From Mycobacterium spongiae (GTDB taxonomy: Bacteria; Actinomycetota; Actinomycetes; Mycobacteriales; Mycobacteriaceae), in NCBI RefSeq assembly GCF_018278905.1, contig NZ_CP046600.1, forward strand, positions 558,001-622,000: a DNA stretch of 64,000 nt, in the 5' to 3' direction. Below are positions 25,924 through 46,241 of the stretch, one piece after another. Position 1 is the stretch's first letter; the number at the start of each line of letters is the position of its first letter. Position numbers and translations under genes: made by a program. The notes under the pieces are model-generated. The model was not told the DNA's origin. It made no database searches and was given only the letters and a program-made list of their open reading frames with translations.

Positions 25924-25997
25924 TGGAGCCGATGACGGGAATCGAACCCGCGTATTCAGCTTGGGAAGCTGATGTTCTGCCATTGAACTACATCGGC
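25924..25997 (-). tRNA. glyU: tRNA-Gly (anticodon CCC)
   Basis: On the minus strand the acceptor stem GCCGATG pairs with CATCGGC, discriminator T is followed by an encoded CCA, the T arm reads CGGGTTCGATTCCCG, and the anticodon stem TCAGC/GCTGA encloses loop TTCCCAA with anticodon CCC. Total 74 nt including CCA. In H37Rv a glycine tRNA (glyU) sits in the same place between glpQ2 and Rv0318c. Junctions of tRNA genes are common insertion points; the accessory stretch 21402-25865 ends here. Confidence 0.95.
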
Positions 25998-35091: not shown

Positions 35092-35239
35092 GCCACCGCG
35101 CCTCCTGGTTCGCCGGTGTGCGCAGGATCTAGCGGTCGATGAAGCCGGTACGACTTTGTCGCGGCAGCTGTCGGCAACCAGCCGCAAGGCTCAGCCATGG
35201 CAACCACGATGGATCCTTGTGGACCGGTGCCCCCTGTCC

Positions 35240-35495
35240 ACTAGGGTCAACAGCGTGTGGGCTATCGGTGACGCCGTTGTGGGGACCCTGCCGAGTGGAA
35301 AACCATCCACGATGGCAGCGGCACCGAATCCCGGGCCGCCCACCTTGCCACCCACGACGTCGCGCGCCGTCTCGGCGACGACGCGCCCGAGCGCTGGTTC
35401 ATCGCGGAGCGTGCCCGCCAGGTCGCGACCGCCGATCGTCCGGTCGCCCGCGGCGATGTGTTACCCGCCCTGAGCCGCGTTCCACAAGGAGAAGG
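35240..35495 (+). pseudogene. probable decayed gene fragments in three frames
   Basis: Between the TetR gene and 35496 lie 404 bp without an intact gene but with coding-like DNA. Positions 35240-35284 read TRVNSVWAIGDAVVG, close to the C-terminal FAD-binding motif of pyridine-nucleotide disulfide oxidoreductases. From 35293, in another frame, codons with very high third-position GC read HDGSGTESRAAHLATHDVA and on through ERWFIAERARQVATADRP to a TGA at 35554. Neither has a start or full domain. I infer remnants of one or two deleted or frameshifted genes, related to the divergence of this locus from H37Rv. The rest of the gap (35092-35239) shows nothing. Confidence 0.4.
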
Positions 35496-36356
35496 TTGCC
35501 GAAGAACACGCCTGGTTGGACCATTGAGACGGATGCCCCTGGCATCAATGGGATGACCGATCGCCGAGACGGCTATCCGCTGGTTGCGCCAAAGGAGTTC
35601 GATGCGCCTTCGGTGTTTCGCCCGGTAAACCTGCTGCGCGAATCCCGCCGTCAGAAAGCCCTGCCGGACACTCCGGTCCCCGAGGTCTGCGTTTTGGATC
35701 CCGACGGCGACATCGTCCGCCACCTGGCGCGCACCGGGACGGGCTACCGCCACTCGGGCTGGGCCTGCTACCACACCGACATGTGGGTCACCCAGACCAA
35801 TGGAGTTGAACTCGGGGTTGTCGGGATGGCCGTGGGCGCGCCGTTTGCGGTGTTGGTGGCCGAGCAGCTCGCCGCTTGCAACGCGGCGTTGGTGGTGAGC
35901 ATCACCTCCGCCGGCCGCATTTCCGGAACCGACACACCACCGTATTTCGTCCTTATCGAGCGGGCGCTCCGCGACGAGGGAACAAGCGCGCACTACGTCG
36001 CACCCGGCGAATGGAGCTATCTCGCCCCGGGGTTGCGGCAAGGACTCCGAAATGCGTTCGATGACAACGGTATCCCGGTAATCTCGGGAAGCTCGTGGAC
36101 GACCGACGCGCCGTACCGGGAAACCGCGGCGGCAATCAAAGAGGCCGAGAGGCGGGGAATCACCTGCGTCGAAATGGAGGCAGCGGCGTTGTACGCCTTC
36201 GCCACCCGGGTTGGCCACAACGTCGTCTGTCTGGCGCATATCACCAACACGATGGCGGTCAACGGTGACGACTTCGAAAAGGGTGTCGACAACGGGGTCA
36301 ACGTTTCCTTGGTGGTCGCATCCGCGGTTGCCACGGCGGTACTAGGACGGCCCTAA
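35496..36356 (+). CDS. nucleoside phosphorylase-superfamily protein
   Basis: A 286-aa member of the PNP/UDP phosphorylase superfamily: RHSGWACYHTDMWV, GVVGMAVGAPFAVLVAEQLAAC, ALVVSITSAGRIS, and RRGITCVEMEAAALYAFATR near the C-terminus, where the conserved Met-Glu pair contacts ribose. The family includes purine/uridine phosphorylases and AMP or MTA nucleosidases; which reaction applies is not clear. TTG at 35496 has AAGGAG four bases upstream; ATG at 35553 (MTDRRDGYPL) is an alternative giving 267 aa. It lies 400 bp upstream of narG on the same strand. No H37Rv equivalent recalled here. Confidence 0.78.
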   Translation: MPKNTPGWTIETDAPGINGMTDRRDGYPLVAPKEFDAPSVFRPVNLLRESRRQKALPDTPVPEVCVLDPDGDIVRHLARTGTGYRHSGWACYHTDMWVTQTNGVELGVVGMAVGAPFAVLVAEQLAACNAALVVSITSAGRISGTDTPPYFVLIERALRDEGTSAHYVAPGEWSYLAPGLRQGLRNAFDDNGIPVISGSSWTTDAPYRETAAAIKEAERRGITCVEMEAAALYAFATRVGHNVVCLAHITNTMAVNGDDFEKGVDNGVNVSLVVASAVATAVLGRP

Positions 36357-36756
36357 GAGGCCACTGCTCGCACCGGCCCGCACCCCCCGCATGCGGTTTT
36401 GTGCGTGGTTGTGAGTTTTCGCAGGTCGAGCGCAAATCCACGACGAACCGGCAGCGTCGCCGAGCCGCGCCCAGGCCGAAAAAGAATGTGTTAACAGCAA
36501 GAAAAATGCTTCATTCCGCACCATGACGATCGGGCGGTTCGTTGCGGGTGCCACGAGCCCAACCCCATCGCTCTAGCAGTGGCTTTTCGGTCCAAACGGC
36601 AACAGCCCGGGCTGGCTTCGACAACGCAATATAACCGTGGTGTTAAAGCAATCGCACAGCCACGCGGGCGGGTCGGTGCGATGTTCTTTTCGACCGAAAA
36701 CCTCCCTTACGCTCAGTCAATGACCGCGCGGTAGTCGTTGTTCGAGAGGAGGCGCC
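36357..36756. other. 400-bp regulatory region upstream of narG
   Basis: No gene visible. AT content rises in 36470-36520 (AAAAAGAATGTGTTAACAGC) and 36620-36650. It contains related motifs around TTTTCGGTC, listed separately. No DosR box (GGGACT-type palindrome) was recognised, and no convincing CRP/FNR dimer site. Confidence 0.6.
36584..36700. promoter_or_regulatory. repeated TTTTCGGTC(G/C)AAA motifs upstream of narG
   Basis: TTTTCGGTCCAAAC at 36584-36597 and, on the opposite strand, TTTTCGGTCGAAAA at 36687-36700 match at 12 of 14 bases. The second is itself an inverted repeat TTTTCG-AC-CGAAAA on the plus strand. A half-copy CCGAAAAA lies at 36476-36483. They sit 57 to 173 bp before the narG start, a place suited to a nitrate- or oxygen-responsive regulator. 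The binding protein is not known. Confidence 0.5.
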
Positions 36757-39700
36757 GTGGTTGATCTGAACCAGAATCGCCAGACCGCCGCCGACACCTT
36801 GCTCGGATTCGGCAAATACTTTCATCAGGGCGAGATCTCCCCGGACTACCGAACGCTGCACAAGATCGGTGGCCGGTCGGCGGACGACTTTTACCGGGAC
36901 CGCTGGGCGCACGACAAAGTGGTCCGCTCAACACACGGTGTCAACTGCACCGGCTCGTGTTCGTGGAAGATCTACGTCAAAGACGGCGTGATCACCTGGG
37001 AGTCCCAGCAGACTGACTACCCGACGGTCGGTGCCGACAAACCAGAGTACGAGCCGCGCGGTTGCCCGCGCGGTGCCTCCTTCTCCTGGTACACCTATTC
37101 ACCGGCGCGGGTGCGCTATCCGTATGTGCGCGATGTCCTGCTCAAGTACTACCGCGAAGCCAAGGAGCGGCTCGAAGATCCCGTGCTGGCGTGGGCGGAC
37201 ATCGTCGACGACCCGGTGAAGTCGAGTCGCTACAAGGCCGCGCGCGGCAAGGGTGGATTTGTTCGGGCCGAGTGGTGGGAGGCCGCGGAGATCGCCGCGG
37301 CGGCGCACGTGCACACCGTTAAGCGGTACGGCCCCGATCGGGTCGCCGGCTTCTCGCCGATACCGGCGATGTCGATGGTCAGTCATGCGGTGGGGGCGCG
37401 ATTCATTTCCCTACTCGGCGGGTCGATGCTGTCGTTCTACGATTGGTATGCCGACCTTCCGGTGGCCTCGCCACAGGTCTTCGGCGACCAGACCGATGTA
37501 CCGGAGTCGGCCGACTGGTTCGACGCCGGCTACCTGATCATGTGGGGCTCCAACGTTCCGGTCACCCGCACGCCCGATGCGCACTATATGACGGAGGCGC
37601 GCTACCGCGGCCAGAAGGTGGTCGTGGTCTCGCCGGACTACGCCGACAACACGAAGTTTGCCGATGACTGGCTTCCCGCGCATCCGGGTACCGATGCCGC
37701 GCTGGCGATGTCGATGGGGCACGTCATCCTCAAGGAGTTCTTCGTCGAGCGGACGACCCCCTACTTCTCCGACTATGTCAAGCGATACACGGATCTGCCG
37801 TTTCTGGTCACGCTGACCGAGCGCGACGGGCAATGGCTGCCCGGGAAATTCCTCACCGCAGCCGATCTCGGCGACACCAGCGAAGGTAGTCAATCCAAAA
37901 CGGTGCTCCTCGACGCGCAGGCCAACCCCGTGGTGCCCAACGGCTCGTTGGGCCACCGATTCACGGCATCGGGCGAAGGAAAGTGGAACCTCGATCTGCA
38001 CGGCACCGACCCCCTGCTTTCGCTGCACGGCAGCCACACCGACGTGGCCGCGGTGCAACTGCCTCGCTATGACGGTGATCGGCCCGGCGTGCTGACGCGC
38101 GGGGTCCCAACGAGGATCGTTGGTGGACAACGGGTCACAACGGTCTTCGATCTGCTCATGGCGCAGTACGGGGTGCACCGAGAAGGCCTGCCGGGCGACT
38201 GGCCTTCGGGCTACGACGACTCCACGCAGCCATACACCCCGGCGTGGCAGGAACCCATCACCGGCGTGCCGGCCAAGGCGGCGGAACGGATCGCGCGGGA
38301 ATTCGCCGACAATGCCGAACGCTCACGCGGCAGGTCGATGATTCTGATGGGCGCGGGAACCAACCACTGGTACCACTCGGATCAGATCTACCGCTCATTT
38401 CTGACGTTGGTGATGCTCACCGGCTGTCAAGGTGTCAACGGCGGTGGCTGGGCGCATTACGTCGGCCAGGAGAAATGCCGACCTATCACAGGCTGGTCGA
38501 CACTGGCTTTCGGATTGGACTGGCAGCGGCCGCCGCGCCAGATGCAAGGCACGGTGTTCTGGTACCTGGCGACCGACCAGTGGCGCTACGACGGGTTCAC
38601 CTCCGAGGCGATGGCGTCCCCGCTGGCCGAAGGTCGATTTGCCGGCCGAACGGCAGCCGACAACATCGCGCAGGCGAGCCGAATGGGTTGGATGCCTAGC
38701 TATCCGACCTTCAATCGCAATCCGCTGGATCTGGTCGACGAGGCCGCGCGGCTGGGCAAGGACGCGTCGGCACACGTCGTCGACGGGCTGAAGTCCGGCC
38801 ATCTGTCGTTCGCGTGCGAAGACCCGGATGCGCCGGAGAATTTTCCCCGCTGCCTGACGGTGTGGCGGTCGAACTTGCTCGGCTCGTCGGCGAAGGGCAA
38901 CGAGTACTTCCTCAAACACCTGCTCGGTACCGACTCCAACGTCGCCGCACGTGACGAGGATGGCGTGCGTCCCACCGATGTGCGTTGGCGAGACGAGGCG
39001 CCGGTCGGAAAGCTGGACCTGCTGTTGTCGCTCGACTTCCGCAATACCAGCACCACACTGTATTCCGACATCGTGTTGCCGGCTGCCACGTGGTACGAGA
39101 AGCACGATCTGTCCAGCACCGACATGCACCCGTTCGTCCACGCATTCTCACCGGCGATCTCGCCGCCGTGGGAGACCAAGACCGACTTTGAGGCGTTCCA
39201 CCGGATCGCGCGAGGCTTCTCCTGGCTGGCCGAAAAGCACTTGGGCAAGCGAAAAGATATCGTCGCGGTCCCGCTGCAGCACGACAGCGCCGACGCCACC
39301 GCCCAGCCCGGCGGGCGGGTGCTGGATTGGAAAGCTGGTGAGTGCGAGCCGATTCCCGGCAAGACGATGCCACGGCTCGTTGTCGTTGAGCGGGATTACG
39401 CGACGATCGCGGAAAAGATGGCCGCACTCGGGCCGATGGTGGAAACCGTCGGACTCACCACCAAGGGGGTGACGACGCATCCGGACGCCGAAGTTGAGTA
39501 CTTGCGGGGCGTCAACGGTGCCGTGGTGAGTGGTTCGGCTATCGGGCGGCCGTCGCTGGCCAAGGACATCCACGCGGCGGAGGCAATCCTGGCCCTGTCC
39601 GGAACAACAAATGGGCGCTTAGCGGTCGATGGGTTCGAGGCGCTGCAGCGCCGCACCGGCACGGAGCTGGCCGACCTCGCCAAGGAGAACGAAGGTCGCC

Positions 39701-40434
39701 GTATCACGTTCGCAGACACGCAGTCTCGGCCGGTGCCGGTGAACACATCACCGGAATGGTCCGGCTCGGAGACCGGGGGTCGTCGGTATGCACCGTTCAC
39801 GATCAACACCGAACGACTCAAGCCGTGGCACACGCTGACCGGACGCCAGCACTTCTACCTTGATCACGACTGGATGGGTGAACTTGGCGAGCAATTGCCG
39901 ATCTTCCGTCCGCCGCTGGACATGACGGCATTGTTCAACGAGCCCGTGGTGGGTCACAAGGCCGGCGACAACGGTGCCGCGATCACGGTGCGGTATCTGA
40001 CCCCGCACTCCAAGTGGTCCATCCATTCCGCCTATCAGGACAACTTGTACATGCTCACCCTTTCCCGTGGCGGGCAGTCGATTTGGATGTCGGATGTGGA
40101 TGCCGCGAAGATCGGCGTCAAAGACAACGACTGGATCGAATGCACGAACCGCAACGGCGTGGTGAACGCGCGTGCGATCGTCAGCCATCGGATGCCCGAA
40201 GGCCTGGTGTTCATGTACCACGCGCAAGACAAGGCGGTCGATGTGCCCCGCACCGAAAAGACCGGGAAGCGTGGCGGTATTCACAACGCGCTCACCCGGA
40301 TCATGATCAAACCGTCACACCTGATCGGGGGCTACGCGCAGCAGTCGTTCGCCCTGAACTACCACGGACCCACCGGGAACCAGCGCGACGAGGTCACCAC
40401 GATCAGACGGCGTTCACAGGAAGTGGAGTACTGA
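36757..40434 (+). CDS. narG: respiratory nitrate reductase alpha subunit
   Basis: Molybdopterin-guanine dinucleotide and FS0 [4Fe-4S] catalytic subunit reducing nitrate to nitrite at the cytoplasmic face. The FS0 ligands are H60, C64, C68 and C103 (STHGVNCTGSCSWK; EPRGCPRGAS). FYDWYADLPVASPQVFGDQT at 227-246 contains the Asp expected to ligate Mo. At 1225 aa it is complete and near the H37Rv NarG (1232). No TAT motif leads the protein. GTG 36757 has AGAGGAGG upstream. Sequence differs clearly from my memory of Rv1161 (for example the first 45 residues), so this may be a distinct paralogue. narH begins two bases later. Confidence 0.96.
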   Translation: MVDLNQNRQTAADTLLGFGKYFHQGEISPDYRTLHKIGGRSADDFYRDRWAHDKVVRSTHGVNCTGSCSWKIYVKDGVITWESQQTDYPTVGADKPEYEPRGCPRGASFSWYTYSPARVRYPYVRDVLLKYYREAKERLEDPVLAWADIVDDPVKSSRYKAARGKGGFVRAEWWEAAEIAAAAHVHTVKRYGPDRVAGFSPIPAMSMVSHAVGARFISLLGGSMLSFYDWYADLPVASPQVFGDQTDVPESADWFDAGYLIMWGSNVPVTRTPDAHYMTEARYRGQKVVVVSPDYADNTKFADDWLPAHPGTDAALAMSMGHVILKEFFVERTTPYFSDYVKRYTDLPFLVTLTERDGQWLPGKFLTAADLGDTSEGSQSKTVLLDAQANPVVPNGSLGHRFTASGEGKWNLDLHGTDPLLSLHGSHTDVAAVQLPRYDGDRPGVLTRGVPTRIVGGQRVTTVFDLLMAQYGVHREGLPGDWPSGYDDSTQPYTPAWQEPITGVPAKAAERIAREFADNAERSRGRSMILMGAGTNHWYHSDQIYRSFLTLVMLTGCQGVNGGGWAHYVGQEKCRPITGWSTLAFGLDWQRPPRQMQGTVFWYLATDQWRYDGFTSEAMASPLAEGRFAGRTAADNIAQASRMGWMPSYPTFNRNPLDLVDEAARLGKDASAHVVDGLKSGHLSFACEDPDAPENFPRCLTVWRSNLLGSSAKGNEYFLKHLLGTDSNVAARDEDGVRPTDVRWRDEAPVGKLDLLLSLDFRNTSTTLYSDIVLPAATWYEKHDLSSTDMHPFVHAFSPAISPPWETKTDFEAFHRIARGFSWLAEKHLGKRKDIVAVPLQHDSADATAQPGGRVLDWKAGECEPIPGKTMPRLVVVERDYATIAEKMAALGPMVETVGLTTKGVTTHPDAEVEYLRGVNGAVVSGSAIGRPSLAKDIHAAEAILALSGTTNGRLAVDGFEALQRRTGTELADLAKENEGRRITFADTQSRPVPVNTSPEWSGSETGGRRYAPFTINTERLKPWHTLTGRQHFYLDHDWMGELGEQLPIFRPPLDMTALFNEPVVGHKAGDNGAAITVRYLTPHSKWSIHSAYQDNLYMLTLSRGGQSIWMSDVDAAKIGVKDNDWIECTNRNGVVNARAIVSHRMPEGLVFMYHAQDKAVDVPRTEKTGKRGGIHNALTRIMIKPSHLIGGYAQQSFALNYHGPTGNQRDEVTTIRRRSQEVEY

Positions 40435-40436
40435 CG

Positions 40437-42056
40437 ATGAAAGTCATGGCTCAGCTCGCGATGGTGATGAACCTCGACAAATGCATTGGCTGCCACACCT
40501 GCAGCGTGACCTGCAAGCAAGCTTGGACCAACCGCGGAGGGATGGAGTACGCCTGGTTCAACAATGTGGAAACCCGCCCGGGACAGGGATATCCACGCGG
40601 ATACCAAGACCAGGAGAAGTGGAAGGGCGGCTGGAAACTCAACAAACGCGGCAAGTTGACGCTCAAGTCGGGATCAAGACTGCGGCGGCTGCTGAGTATT
40701 TTCGCCAACCCGGACCTGCCCACCGTGTCGGACTACTACGACCCGTGGACCTACGACTACGAGAACCTGCTGTCCGCGCCGGCCATGGACACCACACCGG
40801 TCGCGCGCCCCAAATCGCTGATCACCGGCGAAGACACCAAGGTGACCTGGGGCGCGAACTGGGATGACGACCTCGGTGGCGGGCCGGAGCAGATTGGCCG
40901 CGATCCGCTCCTGGCCAAGGTGTCCGACAAGGTGAAACTCGAGTTCGAGCAGACCTTTATGTTCTACCTGCCGCGCATTTGTGAGCACTGCCTCAACCCC
41001 TCATGTGCGGCGTCGTGTCCTTCCGGCGCGATCTACAAGCGCAGCGAGGACGGCATCGTGCTGGTTGATCAGGACCGGTGTCGCGGTTGGCGGCAGTGTG
41101 TTACGGGATGCCCGTACAAGAAGATCTATTTCAACCACAAGACCGGCAAAGCCGAAAAGTGCACGTTCTGCTACCCGCGGGTGGAGGTGGGCATTCCGAC
41201 GGTGTGCTCGGAGACCTGTGTTGGTCGGTTGCGCTATATCGGTGTGCTGCTCTACGACGCTGACGCAGTGGCGGCGGCGGCGTCGGTGCCCGACGAGACG
41301 GAGCTCTATCCAGCCCAGCTCGGGGTATTCCTCAACCCGCACGACCCGCGGGTCGTTGCCGAGGCGGAGCGCGCGGGGATCTCGAGCGAATGGATCGAGG
41401 CCGCGCAGAATTCGCCGGTGTACCGACTCATCGTCGATTACCAGCTCGCGCTTCCGCTGCACCCCGAATACCGGACGATGCCGATGGTCTGGTACATCCC
41501 GCCGCTGTCCCCGGTCGTCGACATCCTGGCTGAGACTGGTCATGACGGTGAGAATTCGAACAATCTTTTTGGTGCTATCGACGCTCTTCGCGTCCCGATC
41601 GAGTATCTGGCCGAGTTGTTCACCGCTGGCGACCCCGGTCCGGTTCGCCTTGCGCTGCAACGGCTCGCCGCCATGCGGTCGTACATGCGGGCGGCGAACC
41701 TGGGAGAGGACTTCGACGACACCATCCCGGCATCGGTGCGACTGCGCGGGGAAGAGATCGAGTCGATGTACCGGTTGCTGGCCATCGCCAAGTACGCCGA
41801 CCGTTACGTGATCCCCAATGGTGCGGGATCGGACGCTCATCGCCTGGATGCGCTGGCCACCGGATGCAGCCTGGACACCGACGGCGGTCCAGGGATGACG
41901 GCGTTCGACGCCATGGCAGACAAGTTCCATCTCACCAACACCAACGGCGCCGCCCCGGAAGAAAACTCGGAAGAAAACTCGGAAGAAAAGCCAGTCCGGG
42001 TCAACCTGTTCAACTGGGATGGCAAGAGCACCGATGGCCTAGTGCCCTCGAAGTGA
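40437..42056 (+). CDS. narH: respiratory nitrate reductase beta subunit
   Basis: Electron-transfer subunit carrying four iron-sulfur clusters between NarI haems and NarG. C16-x2-C-x2-C-x3-C26 (CIGCHTCSVTCKQ), CEHCLNPSCAASCPSG, CRGWRQCVTGCPYKK and CTFCYPRVEVGIPTVCSETC supply ligands; the Trp in the third set marks the [3Fe-4S] cluster, as in other NarH. It is 539 aa; the C-terminus ends with a short repeated ENSEENSEE stretch, 41959-41990. ATG 40437 follows the narG stop by two bases with GTGGAG upstream. Confidence 0.96.
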   Translation: MKVMAQLAMVMNLDKCIGCHTCSVTCKQAWTNRGGMEYAWFNNVETRPGQGYPRGYQDQEKWKGGWKLNKRGKLTLKSGSRLRRLLSIFANPDLPTVSDYYDPWTYDYENLLSAPAMDTTPVARPKSLITGEDTKVTWGANWDDDLGGGPEQIGRDPLLAKVSDKVKLEFEQTFMFYLPRICEHCLNPSCAASCPSGAIYKRSEDGIVLVDQDRCRGWRQCVTGCPYKKIYFNHKTGKAEKCTFCYPRVEVGIPTVCSETCVGRLRYIGVLLYDADAVAAAASVPDETELYPAQLGVFLNPHDPRVVAEAERAGISSEWIEAAQNSPVYRLIVDYQLALPLHPEYRTMPMVWYIPPLSPVVDILAETGHDGENSNNLFGAIDALRVPIEYLAELFTAGDPGPVRLALQRLAAMRSYMRAANLGEDFDDTIPASVRLRGEEIESMYRLLAIAKYADRYVIPNGAGSDAHRLDALATGCSLDTDGGPGMTAFDAMADKFHLTNTNGAAPEENSEENSEEKPVRVNLFNWDGKSTDGLVPSK

Positions 42057-42074
42057 GGGAGCGATGAGCGAGCG

Positions 42075-42749
42075 ATGAAGATGCTGACCTTGGCGCGCCG
42101 GCGGTCCGACTATGGAGTCGGTCTGTCCCAGCGCGACCAGCGCCTGGTGTGGCGGATCGCGGCGCTGCTGCTGGACTATCCCGGCGCGCAGACGCTTGCT
42201 ATGACCGATCAACTCCACGCCGCGGCTACCGAACTACCCGAATCCGTAGGCGCGCCGCTGATCGAATTCCTGGACGCAGTGTTTGATGCGGATCCGCTAC
42301 AGCTCGCCGCGCGCTATGTGGAAACGTTTGACATGCGTCGTCGTTCGAGCCTGCACTTGACGTACTACGCCTACGGGGACACCCGAAAGCGGGGCATGGC
42401 GCTGCTGCGGTTCAAGCACGCCTACCGCCAGGCCGGGATGCAGATCGGCGATGGCGAACTACCCGACTACCTACCGCTGGTTCTCGAGTTCGCCGCAACC
42501 GTCGATCATGTGCAGGGCGAGCGGTTGTTGGGCGAACATGTTCCGGTTCTGGAGCTGCTGCGACTGTCCCTACTGGACAACGGTTCTCCCCACGCACTGG
42601 TGGTGGCCGCGGTGCTGGCGACGCTACCGCCGATCAGTACCGCGGACCGCCGTCGGATTGCCGAGCTGGCTGCACAGGGACCGCCCGACGAGCACGTCGG
42701 CCTGGAACCGTTCGCCTTGGATCCGCTCACCACGGAGGGCCGCCGGTGA
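42075..42749 (+). CDS. narJ: nitrate reductase assembly chaperone
   Basis: Dedicated chaperone (224 aa) that inserts molybdenum cofactor into NarG and holds apo-NarGH until membrane attachment; not part of the final enzyme. All-helical TorD/NarJ-like fold: LVWRIAALLLDYPGAQTLAM near the N-terminus, YVETFDMRRRSSLHLTYYAYGDTRKRG in the centre (the family signature with D-x-x-x-x-x-x-L-Y-L-T-Y), and GELPDYLPLVLEFAATV. ATG 42075 is 18 bp after narH; its TGA overlaps the narI GTG by four bases. Confidence 0.94.
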   Translation: MKMLTLARRRSDYGVGLSQRDQRLVWRIAALLLDYPGAQTLAMTDQLHAAATELPESVGAPLIEFLDAVFDADPLQLAARYVETFDMRRRSSLHLTYYAYGDTRKRGMALLRFKHAYRQAGMQIGDGELPDYLPLVLEFAATVDHVQGERLLGEHVPVLELLRLSLLDNGSPHALVVAAVLATLPPISTADRRRIAELAAQGPPDEHVGLEPFALDPLTTEGRR

Positions 42750-43489
42750 CTACCCTGCTGTGGATGACCGCGCCATACGTCGCGTTCACATCGTTTGTGC
42801 TGGGACATATCTGGCGCTACCGCACCGACCAGTTCGGCTGGACCACAAGGTCTTCGCAGATTTACGAGAGCCGGCTGCTACAGCTGGGAAGCCCGCTGTT
42901 CCACTTCGGCCTGCTTGGCGTCTTCGGCGGTCACGTCGTGGGCCTGCTCATTCCGCAGTCCTGGACCGCGGCGGTCGGCATCTCCGAGTCTGCCTACCAT
43001 CTGATGGCTGTCACGATGGGCTCGCTTGCGGGTTTTGCCGTCGTGACCGGACTCGGAATCCTGCTCTATCGGCGCATTACGGTGTCTGCGGTGCGAAAGG
43101 CCACCACCCGCAGCGACAAACTGATGTATTTGCTTCTGGTGGGCGCCTTGGTGACCGGCATGCTCAACACCTTGACTAACGTGTTCGCCCGCTACAACTA
43201 TCGCGACACGGTGTCGCCGTGGTTCCGCAGCCTGTTCTCGGTGCACCCGTCGGTGGACTTGATGGCCCAAGCGCCGTTGACGTTTCAATTACACGCGCTG
43301 ATTGTTCTTGCCCTGCTCAGTATTTGGCCCTACACGCGGCTGGTGCATATGTTCAGCGCGCCGATCGGATACCTGGTGCGTCCCTATGTCGTCTACCGCA
43401 GTCGCGACCCCCAGAAGGCCTCCAGCAACCGTTACGCAAAAGCCTGGGTGGCACCCGAGGCTCCGCCCGCGCGAAGCCGCTGGGTGTGA
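42746..43489 (+). CDS. narI: respiratory nitrate reductase gamma subunit
   Basis: Membrane cytochrome b subunit (247 aa, about five transmembrane helices) that oxidises menaquinol and feeds NarH through two b haems. Family segments: FVLGHIWRYRTDQFGWTTRS near residue 16, FHFGLLGVFGGHVVGLLIP with haem-ligand histidines, and the C-terminal FQLHALIVLALLSIWPYTRLVH with further histidines. GTG 42746 overlaps the end of narJ (GTGA), so translation is probably coupled. No nitrate/nitrite transporter (narK) follows. Confidence 0.95.
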   Translation: MTTLLWMTAPYVAFTSFVLGHIWRYRTDQFGWTTRSSQIYESRLLQLGSPLFHFGLLGVFGGHVVGLLIPQSWTAAVGISESAYHLMAVTMGSLAGFAVVTGLGILLYRRITVSAVRKATTRSDKLMYLLLVGALVTGMLNTLTNVFARYNYRDTVSPWFRSLFSVHPSVDLMAQAPLTFQLHALIVLALLSIWPYTRLVHMFSAPIGYLVRPYVVYRSRDPQKASSNRYAKAWVAPEAPPARSRWV

Positions 43490-43761: not shown

Positions 43762-44907
43762 ATGAGCCTGGCATTTCACTGGTTTCTGCCGACCTACGGC
43801 GATTCCCGGAACCTGGTCCCGGGTGGCCATGGCACGCCGATGTCCGGGGACCGGCCTGCGACGCTGCGTTACCTGCGCCAGATTTGTGCGGCCGCCGAAA
43901 CCAATGGTTTCGAGGCGGTATTGACGCCCACCGGATTGTGGTGCGAGGACGCCTGGCTGACCACGGCGATGCTGATCGAGGACACCGACACGCTGAAGTT
44001 TCTGGTCGCGGTCCGACCGGGGCTGACCAGCCCGACCCTGGCCGCCCAGATGGCGGGGACTTTCCAACGGCACTCAGGCGGACGACTGCTGCTCAACGTC
44101 GTCACCGGTGGCGAGTCGCATGAGCAACAGGCCTACGGGGATTTCCTGGACAAGCAGTCGCGGTACGCCCGTACCGCCGAATTCCTCCAGGTCGTCCGCC
44201 GACTATGGGCTTCAAGTGATCCGGTGACCTTCGCGGGCGATCACATCCGCGTCGAGGGTGCCGAGCTGACCAATCGGCCCGACCCGGTGCCGGCGGTCTT
44301 CTTCGGCGGATCGTCAGAACCCGCCGGGTCGGTCGCGGCTAGGCACGCCGACGTCTACCTCACCTGGGGCGAGCCGTTGGTCGCTGTCGGTGAGAAACTG
44401 GACTGGATTCGCGGGCTTGCCGCAGGTAGTGGCCGGGTTCTCCAGTACGGCTTGCGGATCCACGTGATCAGTCGCGACACCGCTGAGGAGGCGTGGCGCG
44501 AGGCGGACAGGCTGCTGGCCGGTGTCGATGCGGCCGACGTCGAACGGCTGCAGGCCAGCCTGGCGCGCAGCGAATCGGTAGGGCAGCGGCGGATGCTGGA
44601 GTTGCACGGCGGAAGCGTCAGCGAGCTGGTGGTCGCGCCCAACTTGTGGGCCGGGGTAGGACTGGTACGAGGCGGGGCTGGCACGGCCCTGGTCGGGTCG
44701 CACGACGAGGTCGCCCAACGGCTGGTCGAGTACTCCAACCTGGGCATCACCCATTTCATCTTGTCGGGATATCCGCACCTGGAGGAGGCCTACCGGTTTG
44801 GCGAAGGCGTGCTGCCGCTGCTAGAACGCCGCGGCCTCTGGAAGCGGCCGAACGCCGCGGCCGAACCCGAACCCGCGGTTCCGTTCGCGGTCGCCGCCGC
44901 GCACTGA
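43762..44907 (+). CDS. alkanesulfonate monooxygenase (SsuD-like)
   Basis: Luciferase-superfamily FMNH2-dependent monooxygenase, 381 aa, the same length as E. coli SsuD, which releases sulfite from alkanesulfonates. Family features are FHWFLPTYGDSRNLVPGG at the start, the active-site Cys region GFEAVLTPTGLWCEDAWLT near 50-68, QRHSGGRLLLNVVTGGESHEQQAYGDFLD and YPHLEEAYRFGEGVLPLL at the end. ATG 43762 has GGGAGG upstream. The MHS transporter gene starts five bases after the stop, so the pair is an operon. No SsuABC transporter or flavin reductase adjoins; the reductase-like gene at 21402 is distant. Confidence 0.87.
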   Translation: MSLAFHWFLPTYGDSRNLVPGGHGTPMSGDRPATLRYLRQICAAAETNGFEAVLTPTGLWCEDAWLTTAMLIEDTDTLKFLVAVRPGLTSPTLAAQMAGTFQRHSGGRLLLNVVTGGESHEQQAYGDFLDKQSRYARTAEFLQVVRRLWASSDPVTFAGDHIRVEGAELTNRPDPVPAVFFGGSSEPAGSVAARHADVYLTWGEPLVAVGEKLDWIRGLAAGSGRVLQYGLRIHVISRDTAEEAWREADRLLAGVDAADVERLQASLARSESVGQRRMLELHGGSVSELVVAPNLWAGVGLVRGGAGTALVGSHDEVAQRLVEYSNLGITHFILSGYPHLEEAYRFGEGVLPLLERRGLWKRPNAAAEPEPAVPFAVAAAH

Positions 44908-44912
44908 CCCCG

Positions 44913-46241
44913 ATGGCGACAGCACTACCGGTGCGCCCGACCGGCGCGGGTGAGTCGCAACGGCAGCAGTCCCGGCGCCTGCGCATTGTCGTGGTAGCAA
45001 GCTTGCTGGGCACCACCGTGGAGTGGTACGACTTCTTCCTCTACGCCACCGCAGCCGGTCTGGTGTTCAACCGGGTGTTCTTTCCCGGCGAAAGTTCCCT
45101 GGTGGGCACCCTGCTGGCGTTCGCGACATTCGCGCTCGGGTTCGTGATGCGGCCAATCGGCGGGTTGGTGTTCGGGCATATCGGCGACCGCGTCGGCCGC
45201 AAACGCAGTCTGGCGCTGACGATGCTGATCATGGGCGGCGCTACCACGTTGATTGGGGCCTTGCCCACCGCGGCCCAGGTCGGGGTCTGGGCACCGGTGG
45301 GCTTGCTGGCACTGCGCTTGGTGCAGGGTTTCGCGCTCGGCGGTGAGTGGGCCGGTGCGATGCTGCTGGCTGTCGAACACAGCCCAGCTCACCGGCGGGG
45401 CCGCTTCGGGGCGATTCCCCAGATGGGGTTGGCGCTCGGTCTCGCGCTTGGGACGGGCGTGTTCGCGTTCCTCCAGCTGGTTCTAGGCCCGGATTCCTTC
45501 CTTGCTTATGGCTGGCGTCTGGGGTTCCTACTGAGCCTCGGGCTGGTCATCGTCGGGGTCGTGGTGCGGTTGCGGGTCGAAGAAACGCCCGCCTTCCGTC
45601 AGCTGCACGACCTCGAGGTGGCCTCCTCCATGCCCATTCGGCAGATCCTTCGGGAACCCCGCAGCAGGCGCAACACGGTGCTCGGGCTGCTGTCGCGCTG
45701 GGCCGAGGGCTCGGCGTTCAACACCTGGGGCGTCTTCGCCATCAGCTACGCCACCGGCGCGTTGGGACTGAATAGGGTGTCGGTTCTGGTGGTGGTGACG
45801 GTTGCCGCACTGCTCATGGCGCTGCTGCTCCCCGTTTCGGGGGCACTGACAGATCGTTTCGGCGCGCGGCGGGTCTATCTGATCGGCGTAGCCGGCTACG
45901 GTGTTGCAGCTTTTCCGGCATTCGCCTTGTTCGGCACCAAGAACCTGGTCTGGTTCGGGCTGGTGATGATCATGGTGTTCGGCGTCGTCCACGCGATTTT
46001 CTACGGAGCGCAGGGCACGCTGTACTCGGCGTTGTATCCCACGGGCACCCGCTACACGGGGCTGTCGTTGGTCTACCAGCTCTCGGGCGTCTACGCGTCC
46101 GGGGTGACACCGATGATTCTGACCGCACTAATCGCGGTCCGCGGGGGAACGCCGTGGGCCGCGTGCGGATATCTGGTTGCGACCGCCGCGATAAGCGTGC
46201 TGGCCACCGCGTTGATCCGAGAGCATGACCTGCAGCTTTGA
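44913..46241 (+). CDS. MHS-family MFS transporter
   Basis: A 442-aa permease of the metabolite:H+ symporter (MHS) branch: IVVVASLLGTTVEWYDFFLY, the loop motif GHIGDRVGRKRSLALTMLIM, and GFALGGEWAGAMLLAVEHSP are diagnostic. Twelve helices expected. The ATG at 44913 is five bases past the SsuD-like stop, so it should import that enzyme's substrate or export its product. Substrate unknown; MHS members carry dicarboxylates, betaine, aromatic acids and similar. Confidence 0.87.
   Translation: MATALPVRPTGAGESQRQQSRRLRIVVVASLLGTTVEWYDFFLYATAAGLVFNRVFFPGESSLVGTLLAFATFALGFVMRPIGGLVFGHIGDRVGRKRSLALTMLIMGGATTLIGALPTAAQVGVWAPVGLLALRLVQGFALGGEWAGAMLLAVEHSPAHRRGRFGAIPQMGLALGLALGTGVFAFLQLVLGPDSFLAYGWRLGFLLSLGLVIVGVVVRLRVEETPAFRQLHDLEVASSMPIRQILREPRSRRNTVLGLLSRWAEGSAFNTWGVFAISYATGALGLNRVSVLVVVTVAALLMALLLPVSGALTDRFGARRVYLIGVAGYGVAAFPAFALFGTKNLVWFGLVMIMVFGVVHAIFYGAQGTLYSALYPTGTRYTGLSLVYQLSGVYASGVTPMILTALIAVRGGTPWAACGYLVATAAISVLATALIREHDLQL

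What the first reader, a model, noticed from the sequence alone, without database searches (positions are those of the whole stretch)
35496..43489. Complete narGHJI operon at a non-canonical locus, possibly a second nitrate reductase
In H37Rv narGHJI lies at Rv1161-Rv1164, far from tam-ansP2. Here a full operon sits between a TetR/CYP135A1 pair and Rv0332-like genes, where H37Rv has Rv0329c-Rv0331. The NarG N-terminus is clearly not the same as my recollection of Rv1161. A second, diverged nitrate reductase, or a relocated one, would change views of hypoxic nitrate respiration in this species. All cluster ligands are intact, so it should be functional.
Basis: partly seen in the sequence, partly recalled or inferred. 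Interest (0 to 1): 0.78.

Follow-up and report, generated by a model that had tools for sequence, protein, structure and literature searches.

The report
Second-lineage nitrate reductase, now only one
This mycobacterium carries a complete nitrate-respiration enzyme that is not the one studied in the tuberculosis bacillus but a separate, Nocardia-like version, and the usual one is missing, so nitrate traits cannot simply be read across from tuberculosis.

Summary
The operon is real: narG 36757-40434, narH 40437-42056, narJ 42075-42749, narI 42746-43489 (+), all above NCBIfam cut-offs, ligand positions conserved, under purifying selection. The quoted start, 35496, belongs to an upstream phosphorylase-superfamily gene. 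It is neither "second" in this genome nor "relocated". It is the only narG and narI in the 5.58-Mb genome, yet not the Rv1161-type enzyme: 65-66% identity to NarG labelled M. tuberculosis or M. canetti, against 88-94% to a separate lineage ("type A") in at least 29 of 248 genomes of the genus, which nests with Nocardia, Saccharothrix and Hoyosella. An AU test rejects one clade of the two mycobacterial lineages. The canonical site (mutT2-typA) is empty here; in the starred typA clade of eight genomes that holds this one, 6 of the 7 others have narI beside typA, so loss is likeliest. In 13 of the 14 other members of its NarG clade narK follows narI at 103-145 bp, mostly behind an NnaR-like box, sometimes with nirBD and nnaR. 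The window lacks that module; a flavin monooxygenase and an MFS transporter stand there. nirB, narK and an nnaR homologue remain elsewhere. Function is inferred, not assayed.

The parts
35171..35521 (+). degraded remnant of the C-terminal end of a sulfide:quinone-reductase-like gene (the Rv0331 position, gene number recalled)
   Evidence: tblastn of the intact relative L129:4960-6231: 33% over 129 aa, residues 291-419 of 423, E 7e-13; copies in L114 and L137 are 88% and 81% identical to it
35496..36356 (+). phosphorylase-superfamily (PNP_UDP_1) gene upstream of the operon; start uncertain (35496 or 35553); also beside type A nar in L129 and L114
   Evidence: Pfam PF01048; 82% to L129:6245-7048 from 35553; candidate starts
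36488..36756 (+). conserved upstream region of type A narG (blocks include GTGTTAACAGCAAGAAAAATGC at 36488 and GTGTTAAAGCAATCGCAC at 36640); probably promoter and regulator sites, regulator unknown
   Evidence: MAFFT alignment of 14 upstream regions (window and 13 relatives) whose outer parts do not align; positions; no Rfam match at E<=1
36757..40434 (+). narG, nitrate reductase alpha subunit, type A lineage
   Evidence: TIGR01580 1680.6 bits, cut-off 1084.15; aligned to 1Q16 chain A
40437..42056 (+). narH, beta subunit
   Evidence: TIGR01660 747.9 bits; aligned to 1Q16 chain B
42075..42749 (+). narJ, assembly chaperone
   Evidence: TIGR00684 122.3 bits
42746..43489 (+). narI, gamma subunit (di-heme membrane anchor); GTG start overlaps the narJ stop
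   Evidence: TIGR00351 198 bits; aligned to 3EGW chain C
43762..44907 (+). LLM-class flavin monooxygenase (SsuD-like, below the SsuD cut-off), where relatives have narK
   Evidence: TIGR03565 438.9 bits, cut-off 518.2; no hit to it in the loci shown
44913..46241 (+). MFS metabolite/H+ symporter-like transporter; the NarK model is not among its matches
   Evidence: TIGR00883 368.1 bits, cut-off 443.45; start

Best explanation
The operon encodes a quinol-oxidising molybdenum nitrate reductase NarGHI with its chaperone NarJ. It belongs to a NarG lineage ('type A') distinct from the canonical mycobacterial one and shared with Nocardia, Saccharothrix and Hoyosella. An ancestor probably carried both lineages; this lineage lost the canonical operon from between mutT2 and typA and kept type A. 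It also lost the module that follows type A in relatives (NnaR-like box, narK, at times nirB, nirD, nnaR); a monooxygenase and an MFS gene stand there now. Nitrate import and nitrite reduction would then depend on narK and nirB genes elsewhere in the genome. Shown: gene content, lineage, empty canonical site, missing module, purifying selection. Inferred: order of gain and loss, catalytic activity and its orientation, use in respiration and/or assimilation, regulation.
For: Only narG and narI in the genome. Listed matches in the genus fall at 88-94% (type A) or 64-68% (others); 65-66% to NarG labelled M. tuberculosis and M. canetti. Tree: type A mycobacteria with Nocardia, Saccharothrix and Hoyosella as one group at 100*; mycobacterial A and B held together is rejected, p-AU 2.4e-7. 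Canonical site empty here; narI beside typA in 6 of the 7 others of its starred eight-genome typA clade and in 4 of 5 of the other starred type A clade. narK at 103-145 bp after narI in 13 of the 14 other members of its NarG clade, absent in the window. dN/dS for narG 0.053-0.075 against five relatives.
Against: No activity data. The typA tree is a one-gene stand-in for a species tree, so 'lost' rather than 'never had' is inference. Type A is in the same neighbourhood in only five other fetched genomes; elsewhere it sits at different sites, so transfer is possible. Two other molybdopterin oxidoreductases of this genome (848 and 772 aa) are unassigned: they match the NasC model weakly (165 and 158 bits, cut-off 1100) and Fdh-alpha (217 and 209, cut-off 666), so some other nitrate-reducing enzyme is not excluded. 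narJ is less constrained (dN/dS 0.12-0.20).
Confidence: 0.87

Rival explanations
1. Simple relocation of the canonical Rv1161-type operon to a new site.
For: The canonical site is empty and there is exactly one narGHJI.
Against: NarG is only 64-68% identical to the other-lineage NarG listed, while 23 genomes carry type A together with another narG; tree and AU test.
Confidence: 0.02
2. Recent horizontal acquisition of type A into this species, from another mycobacterium or actinomycete, followed by loss of the now redundant canonical copy.
For: Type A sits at several different chromosomal sites in the genus and nests with Nocardia and others.
Against: Same neighbourhood in five relatives, with the same upstream phosphorylase gene in two of them; no near-identical donor among the rows (best 94%; its end branch, 0.057, is the longest of its 12-row group); conserved upstream region.
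Confidence: 0.2
3. The operon is decaying and no longer functional, having lost its transporter and nitrite reductase partners.
For: narK, nirBD, nnaR and the NnaR-like box are absent from the locus; a neighbouring gene is a degraded remnant.
Against: All four frames open, ligand positions conserved, dN/dS about 0.05-0.07 for narG and narH, nirB and narK exist elsewhere.
Confidence: 0.08

Closest known systems
Canonical mycobacterial narGHJI (Rv1161-Rv1164 type, here 'type B')
   Same: Same four genes in the same order, same enzyme class
   Different: Separate NarG clade; 65% identity; site between mutT2 and typA, which is empty in this genome
E. coli NarGHI (PDB 1Q16, 3EGW)
   Same: Full-length or near full-length match of all three subunits; Fe-S, heme and Mo ligand positions conserved
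   Different: Distant sequence; regulation not compared
Type A narG of records labelled M. szulgai, M. angelicum, M. shinjukuense, M. simulans, M. pseudokansasii, M. kansasii, M. nebraskense and M. fortuitum, among others
   Same: NarG 88-93% identical to the window's
   Different: In the window's NarG clade narK follows narI in 13 of 14 others, mostly behind an NnaR-like box; missing here. 23 of 29 type A genomes keep another narG
Nocardia / Saccharothrix / Hoyosella narGHJI
   Same: Nearest groups outside mycobacteria, NarG 80-86% identity
   Different: narK linkage variable

Membership tests
Respiratory nitrate reductase NarGHJI | All four subunits above curated family cut-offs, in the order G-H-J-I | tested here: met
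Respiratory nitrate reductase NarGHJI | FS0 ligands (His, three Cys) and Asp Mo ligand of NarG (E. coli ligand identities recalled) | tested here: met
   alignment to 1Q16_A: THGVNCTGSC, PRGCPRG and the Asp of the SFYDWY-x-DLP stretch conserved
Respiratory nitrate reductase NarGHJI | NarH cysteine groups for four clusters including Cys-x-x-Trp-x-x-Cys (recalled) | tested here: met
Respiratory nitrate reductase NarGHJI | Four heme-ligand histidines of NarI (recalled) | tested here: met
Respiratory nitrate reductase NarGHJI | Quinol:nitrate oxidoreductase activity | not testable with these tools
   no assay possible
Canonical mycobacterial (Rv1161-type) narGHJI | NarG groups with the mutT2-typA lineage | tested here: not met
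   (p-AU 2.4e-7 against one A+B clade, 40 rows chosen by me); 65% to P0009
Canonical mycobacterial (Rv1161-type) narGHJI | Lies between mutT2 and typA | tested here: not met
   mutT2 and typA abut or overlap in this genome
Type A nar cluster of the window's NarG clade | NarG in the type A clade | tested here: met
Type A nar cluster of the window's NarG clade | Conserved upstream region | tested here: met
Type A nar cluster of the window's NarG clade | narK 103-145 bp behind narI | tested here: not met
   13 of the 14 other clade members (L144 has it 1.7 kb on), not the window; no remnant found
Type A nar cluster of the window's NarG clade | NnaR-like box behind narI | tested here: not met
   10 of the 14 other clade members, not the window

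The most novel reading that the evidence does not exclude
Nitrate reduction in the genus rests on at least two independent NarGHI lineages. Type A is, in its fullest form, a nitrate-to-ammonium cluster (narGHJI, then an NnaR-boxed narK-nirB-nirD-nnaR unit) that in some species supplements and in this one has replaced the tuberculosis-type enzyme, here stripped down to the bare reductase; so nitrate-positive phenotypes in different species arise from non-orthologous, differently controlled enzymes.
Probability: 0.6. Interest if true: 0.5.

Novelty: new member of a known kind. Interest (0 to 1): 0.4.

Why it matters
Nitrate reduction is a classical identification test for mycobacteria (recalled; PMC7719681 passages mention it for M. 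tuberculosis against M. bovis) and a model for hypoxic survival. The passages I saw of two reviews describe one NarGHJI plus the fused NarX of M. tuberculosis (PMC7759655, PMC7719681). If species such as this one use a separate enzyme lineage with its own upstream region and, in relatives, its own NnaR-boxed transporter unit, then transfer of the tuberculosis results by gene name fails, and surveys that score 'narG' as one gene mix at least two lineages. The genus also offers natural strains with type A alone, other lineages alone, and two or three operons, in which a division of labour can be tested.

Tried and rejected
Considered and dropped: relocation of the canonical operon; contamination or assembly artefact (single 5.58-Mb contig, same neighbourhood in five relatives, GC 63.3% against 65.3% for the window); a known RNA leader (no Rfam match at E<=1); NarK identity of the downstream MFS gene; an NnaR-like box in the window near narG or behind narI (none); a Nas or Nap enzyme over cut-off elsewhere (none among the five PF00384 places; two remain unassigned). 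A paper search for Rv1160, Rv1161 and Rv1165 together found nothing, so the mutT2-narGHJI-typA order of H37Rv is recalled; I saw that order in seven unnamed relatives. A guess at the place of narG in G096 was wrong: the stretch fetched has none.

Limits: one search scored two candidates per genome and its match list was cut, so 29 type A genomes is a lower bound and copy numbers come (37 genomes chosen by me, not a random set). G005 has only narG fragments. For the 142-row tree I left out eleven loci by name (L001, L025, L026, L131 and seven repeat fetches) and all hits under 1100 aligned residues; the 40 rows were picked from these, and the A and B groups were named after the first tree was seen and leave out the third mycobacterial group. 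The 21 loci are loci already known to have narK near nar; 6 of them have no box within 160 bases of narI. The relatives' narK model protein is itself below the curated NarK cut-off (252.7 against 311.7 bits), its nirD was named by position behind nirB and not scanned, and 'nnaR' rests on a HemD-family match (531.9 bits) and 53% identity to a homologue near this genome's nirB; its DNA-binding part was not tested.
Full report
What is there. The window holds narG (36757-40434), narH (40437-42056), narJ (42075-42749) and narI (42746-43489), all on the + strand and all above NCBIfam cut-offs. The finding's start, 35496, is a candidate start of a separate phosphorylase-superfamily gene. Upstream lie a dCTP-deaminase-like gene, a UDP-glucose/GDP-mannose-dehydrogenase-type gene, a cytochrome P450 and a TetR gene; downstream a flavin monooxygenase, an MFS transporter, then MDMPI, SnoaL, nucleotidyltransferase, aminotransferase and CCG/Fer4 genes. 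Alignments to E. coli NarGHI (1Q16, 3EGW) keep the FS0 motif, the Mo-ligand Asp, the NarH cysteine groups with the Cys-x-x-Trp-x-x-Cys motif, and the four NarI histidines (ligand identities recalled).

Only copy. A TIGR01580 search of the 5,581,157-base single-contig genome finds this narG alone, and TIGR00351 finds this narI alone, which also argues against a NarX-type fusion. Of five PF00384 places, one is this NarG, one NuoG, one an FdhF/YdeP-type protein, and two are unassigned, below the cut-off of every family listed for them. nirB (510622-513036), a NarK over cut-off (519897-521000), a second NarK-like gene below cut-off (3632672-3633832) and an NnaR homologue (53% to that of L129) are elsewhere.

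Lineage. Of 248 genomes of the genus, 138 have a NarG match at E<=1e-100; the matches listed fall at 88-94% or 64-68% identity with none between (the list was cut). At least 29 genomes, this one included, have the high class ('type A'). Re-counting with the family model gives one narG in this genome and in G067, G229, G227 and G246, two fragments in G005, and two or three in the other 23; G087, G239, G097, G136 and G245 have three. The window's NarG is 65% identical to a protein labelled M. tuberculosis (P0009) and 66% to one labelled M. canetti (P0066); P0009 is 83% and P0066 79% identical to the NarG that lies between mutT2 and typA in G016. A FastTree of 142 NarG and an IQ-TREE of 40 chosen from them both place type A mycobacteria with Nocardia, Saccharothrix, Streptomyces luteolifulvus, Hoyosella and Rhodococcus triatomae at 100*, apart from type B; holding mycobacterial A and B together is rejected (p-AU 2.4e-7). 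Records with type A NarG carry the labels M. simulans, M. angelicum, M. szulgai, M. shinjukuense, M. pseudokansasii, M. kansasii, M. nebraskense, M. fortuitum, M. setense, M. conceptionense and M. peregrinum, among others.

The canonical site. Of 19 loci compared with this genome's typA region, seven (G016, G022, G028, G023, G242, G080, G083) have nar between orthologues of mutT2 and typA, G140 matches on the typA side only, and the others, several of them second operons or other lineages, do not match it. Here mutT2 (134 aa) and typA abut or overlap. A typA search of 30 genomes (29 type A carriers and G016) with 1.5 kb of flank shows mutT2 within about 0.65 kb of typA and no narI between in five: this one, G106, G246, G229 and G227. 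In the DNA tree of typA this genome falls in a starred clade of eight (G250, G139, G000, G128, G245, G114, G242, G097); narI is beside typA in 6 of the 7 others, the exception G128 having its other narG elsewhere. In the other starred clade (G028, G087, G023, G136, G239) it is beside typA in 4 of 5; G239's contig ends about 1.1 kb on. Loss in this lineage is the simplest reading.

The type A locus. Five other fetched genomes have type A in this neighbourhood (L129, L114, L031=L131, L135, L137). L129 keeps tetR, two small genes, a sulfide:quinone-reductase-like gene (Rv0331 position), the phosphorylase gene, narGHJI, narK, a nirD-like gene, an nnaR-like gene, a 314-aa gene and then the Rv0332-like gene. 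The window retains the phosphorylase gene and a degraded end of the Rv0331-like gene at 35171-35521 (33% over 129 aa). So in L129, and probably in this genome's ancestor, type A stands at what in H37Rv is the Rv0331-Rv0332 boundary (gene numbers recalled).

The missing module. In the 15-row NarG clade that holds the window (95*), narK follows narI at 103-145 bp in 13 of the 14 others (L112, L114, L129, L130, L132, L133, L134, L136, L137, L031, L135, L032, L033); the 14th, L144, has nnaR directly behind narI and narK 1.7 kb on. L152, outside that clade, has narK too. Over the 32 mycobacterial type A loci examined, narK is within 150 bp in 19. nirB follows in four (L130, L134, L152, and L132 cut by the contig end); a nirD-like gene is seen in five and an nnaR-like gene in six, some cut by the end of the stretch. 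The published NnaR motif (PMC11162112, passages) is approximated by CTCAC-N14-22-GTGAG: it occurs 9-51 bp behind narI, always with spacing 18 or 19, in 15 of 21 narK-bearing loci, 10 of the 14 clade members; these 15 are most of the 22 hits in the 416,489 bases of those loci. L144 has one just ahead of its displaced narK. The window has neither narK nor box, and no narK remnant was found. In 18 kb around this genome's nirB, two one-mismatch boxes lie before nirB and before narK, so NnaR control of those genes is plausible, not shown.

Selection and regulation. dN/dS of the window against five relatives is 0.053-0.075 for narG, 0.047-0.067 for narH, 0.071-0.121 for narI and 0.124-0.202 for narJ (Nei-Gojobori with high dS, so rough; the control pair L129-L114 gives 0.018-0.113). 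About 270 bases before narG align in blocks across 14 loci whose outer flanks do not align; two blocks share GTGTTAA. A TTACC-CTC-GGTAA repeat near the start codon is exact in 5 of the 13 relatives (L129, L032, L033, L031, L135) and not in the window or the other eight, so I draw nothing from it. No Rfam family matches at E<=1. The regulator is unknown.

Literature. Ten searches listed no title or abstract opening on a second narGHJI lineage in mycobacteria; most listed papers were not opened. Passages were read in seven: PMC11022373, PMC11162112, PMC5720804, PMC9846761, PMC4818103, PMC7759655, PMC7719681. They describe NarGHJI of M. tuberculosis as both respiratory and assimilatory, NarX as a second homologue, and M. 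abscessus as lacking NarGHJI; PMC9846761 treats narGHI of the M. fortuitum complex together with those of M. tuberculosis. The library holds open-licence PMC texts only. That Streptomyces coelicolor has several nar operons is recalled, so multiple operons in actinobacteria are a known kind.

Verdict. An ordinary enzyme class of an unexpected lineage: a type A NarGHJI that has become the only Nar-type nitrate reductase of its genome, without its usual transporter unit.

Noticed in passing
L154, L159, L160, L163 (G140, G117, G238, G094): A third, long-branched mycobacterial NarG group with a NarI only 44% identical to the window's; each of these four genomes has two narG in all.
   Followed up: partly
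G087, G239, G097, G136, G245: Five of the 37 genomes re-counted hold three narG each.
   Followed up: partly
L157 (G198:C1:2413000-2432900): A NarG on a very long branch (0.46) outside types A and B.
   Followed up: no
window 43762-46241: SsuD-like flavin monooxygenase plus MFS symporter stand where relatives have narK; no homologue in the loci shown, origin not traced.
   Followed up: partly
G000:C1:3561749-3563080 and 418843-419976 (L211, L212): Two molybdopterin oxidoreductases of 848 and 772 aa below the cut-off of every family listed for them.
   Followed up: partly
window 25927-25997 (-): A tRNA gene, the only Rfam match in the window at gathering score.
   Followed up: no
L144 (G106), L145 (G067): Type A loci with rearranged helpers: nnaR directly behind narI and narK 1.7 kb on in L144; a 41% NarK-like gene upstream in L145.
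   Followed up: no
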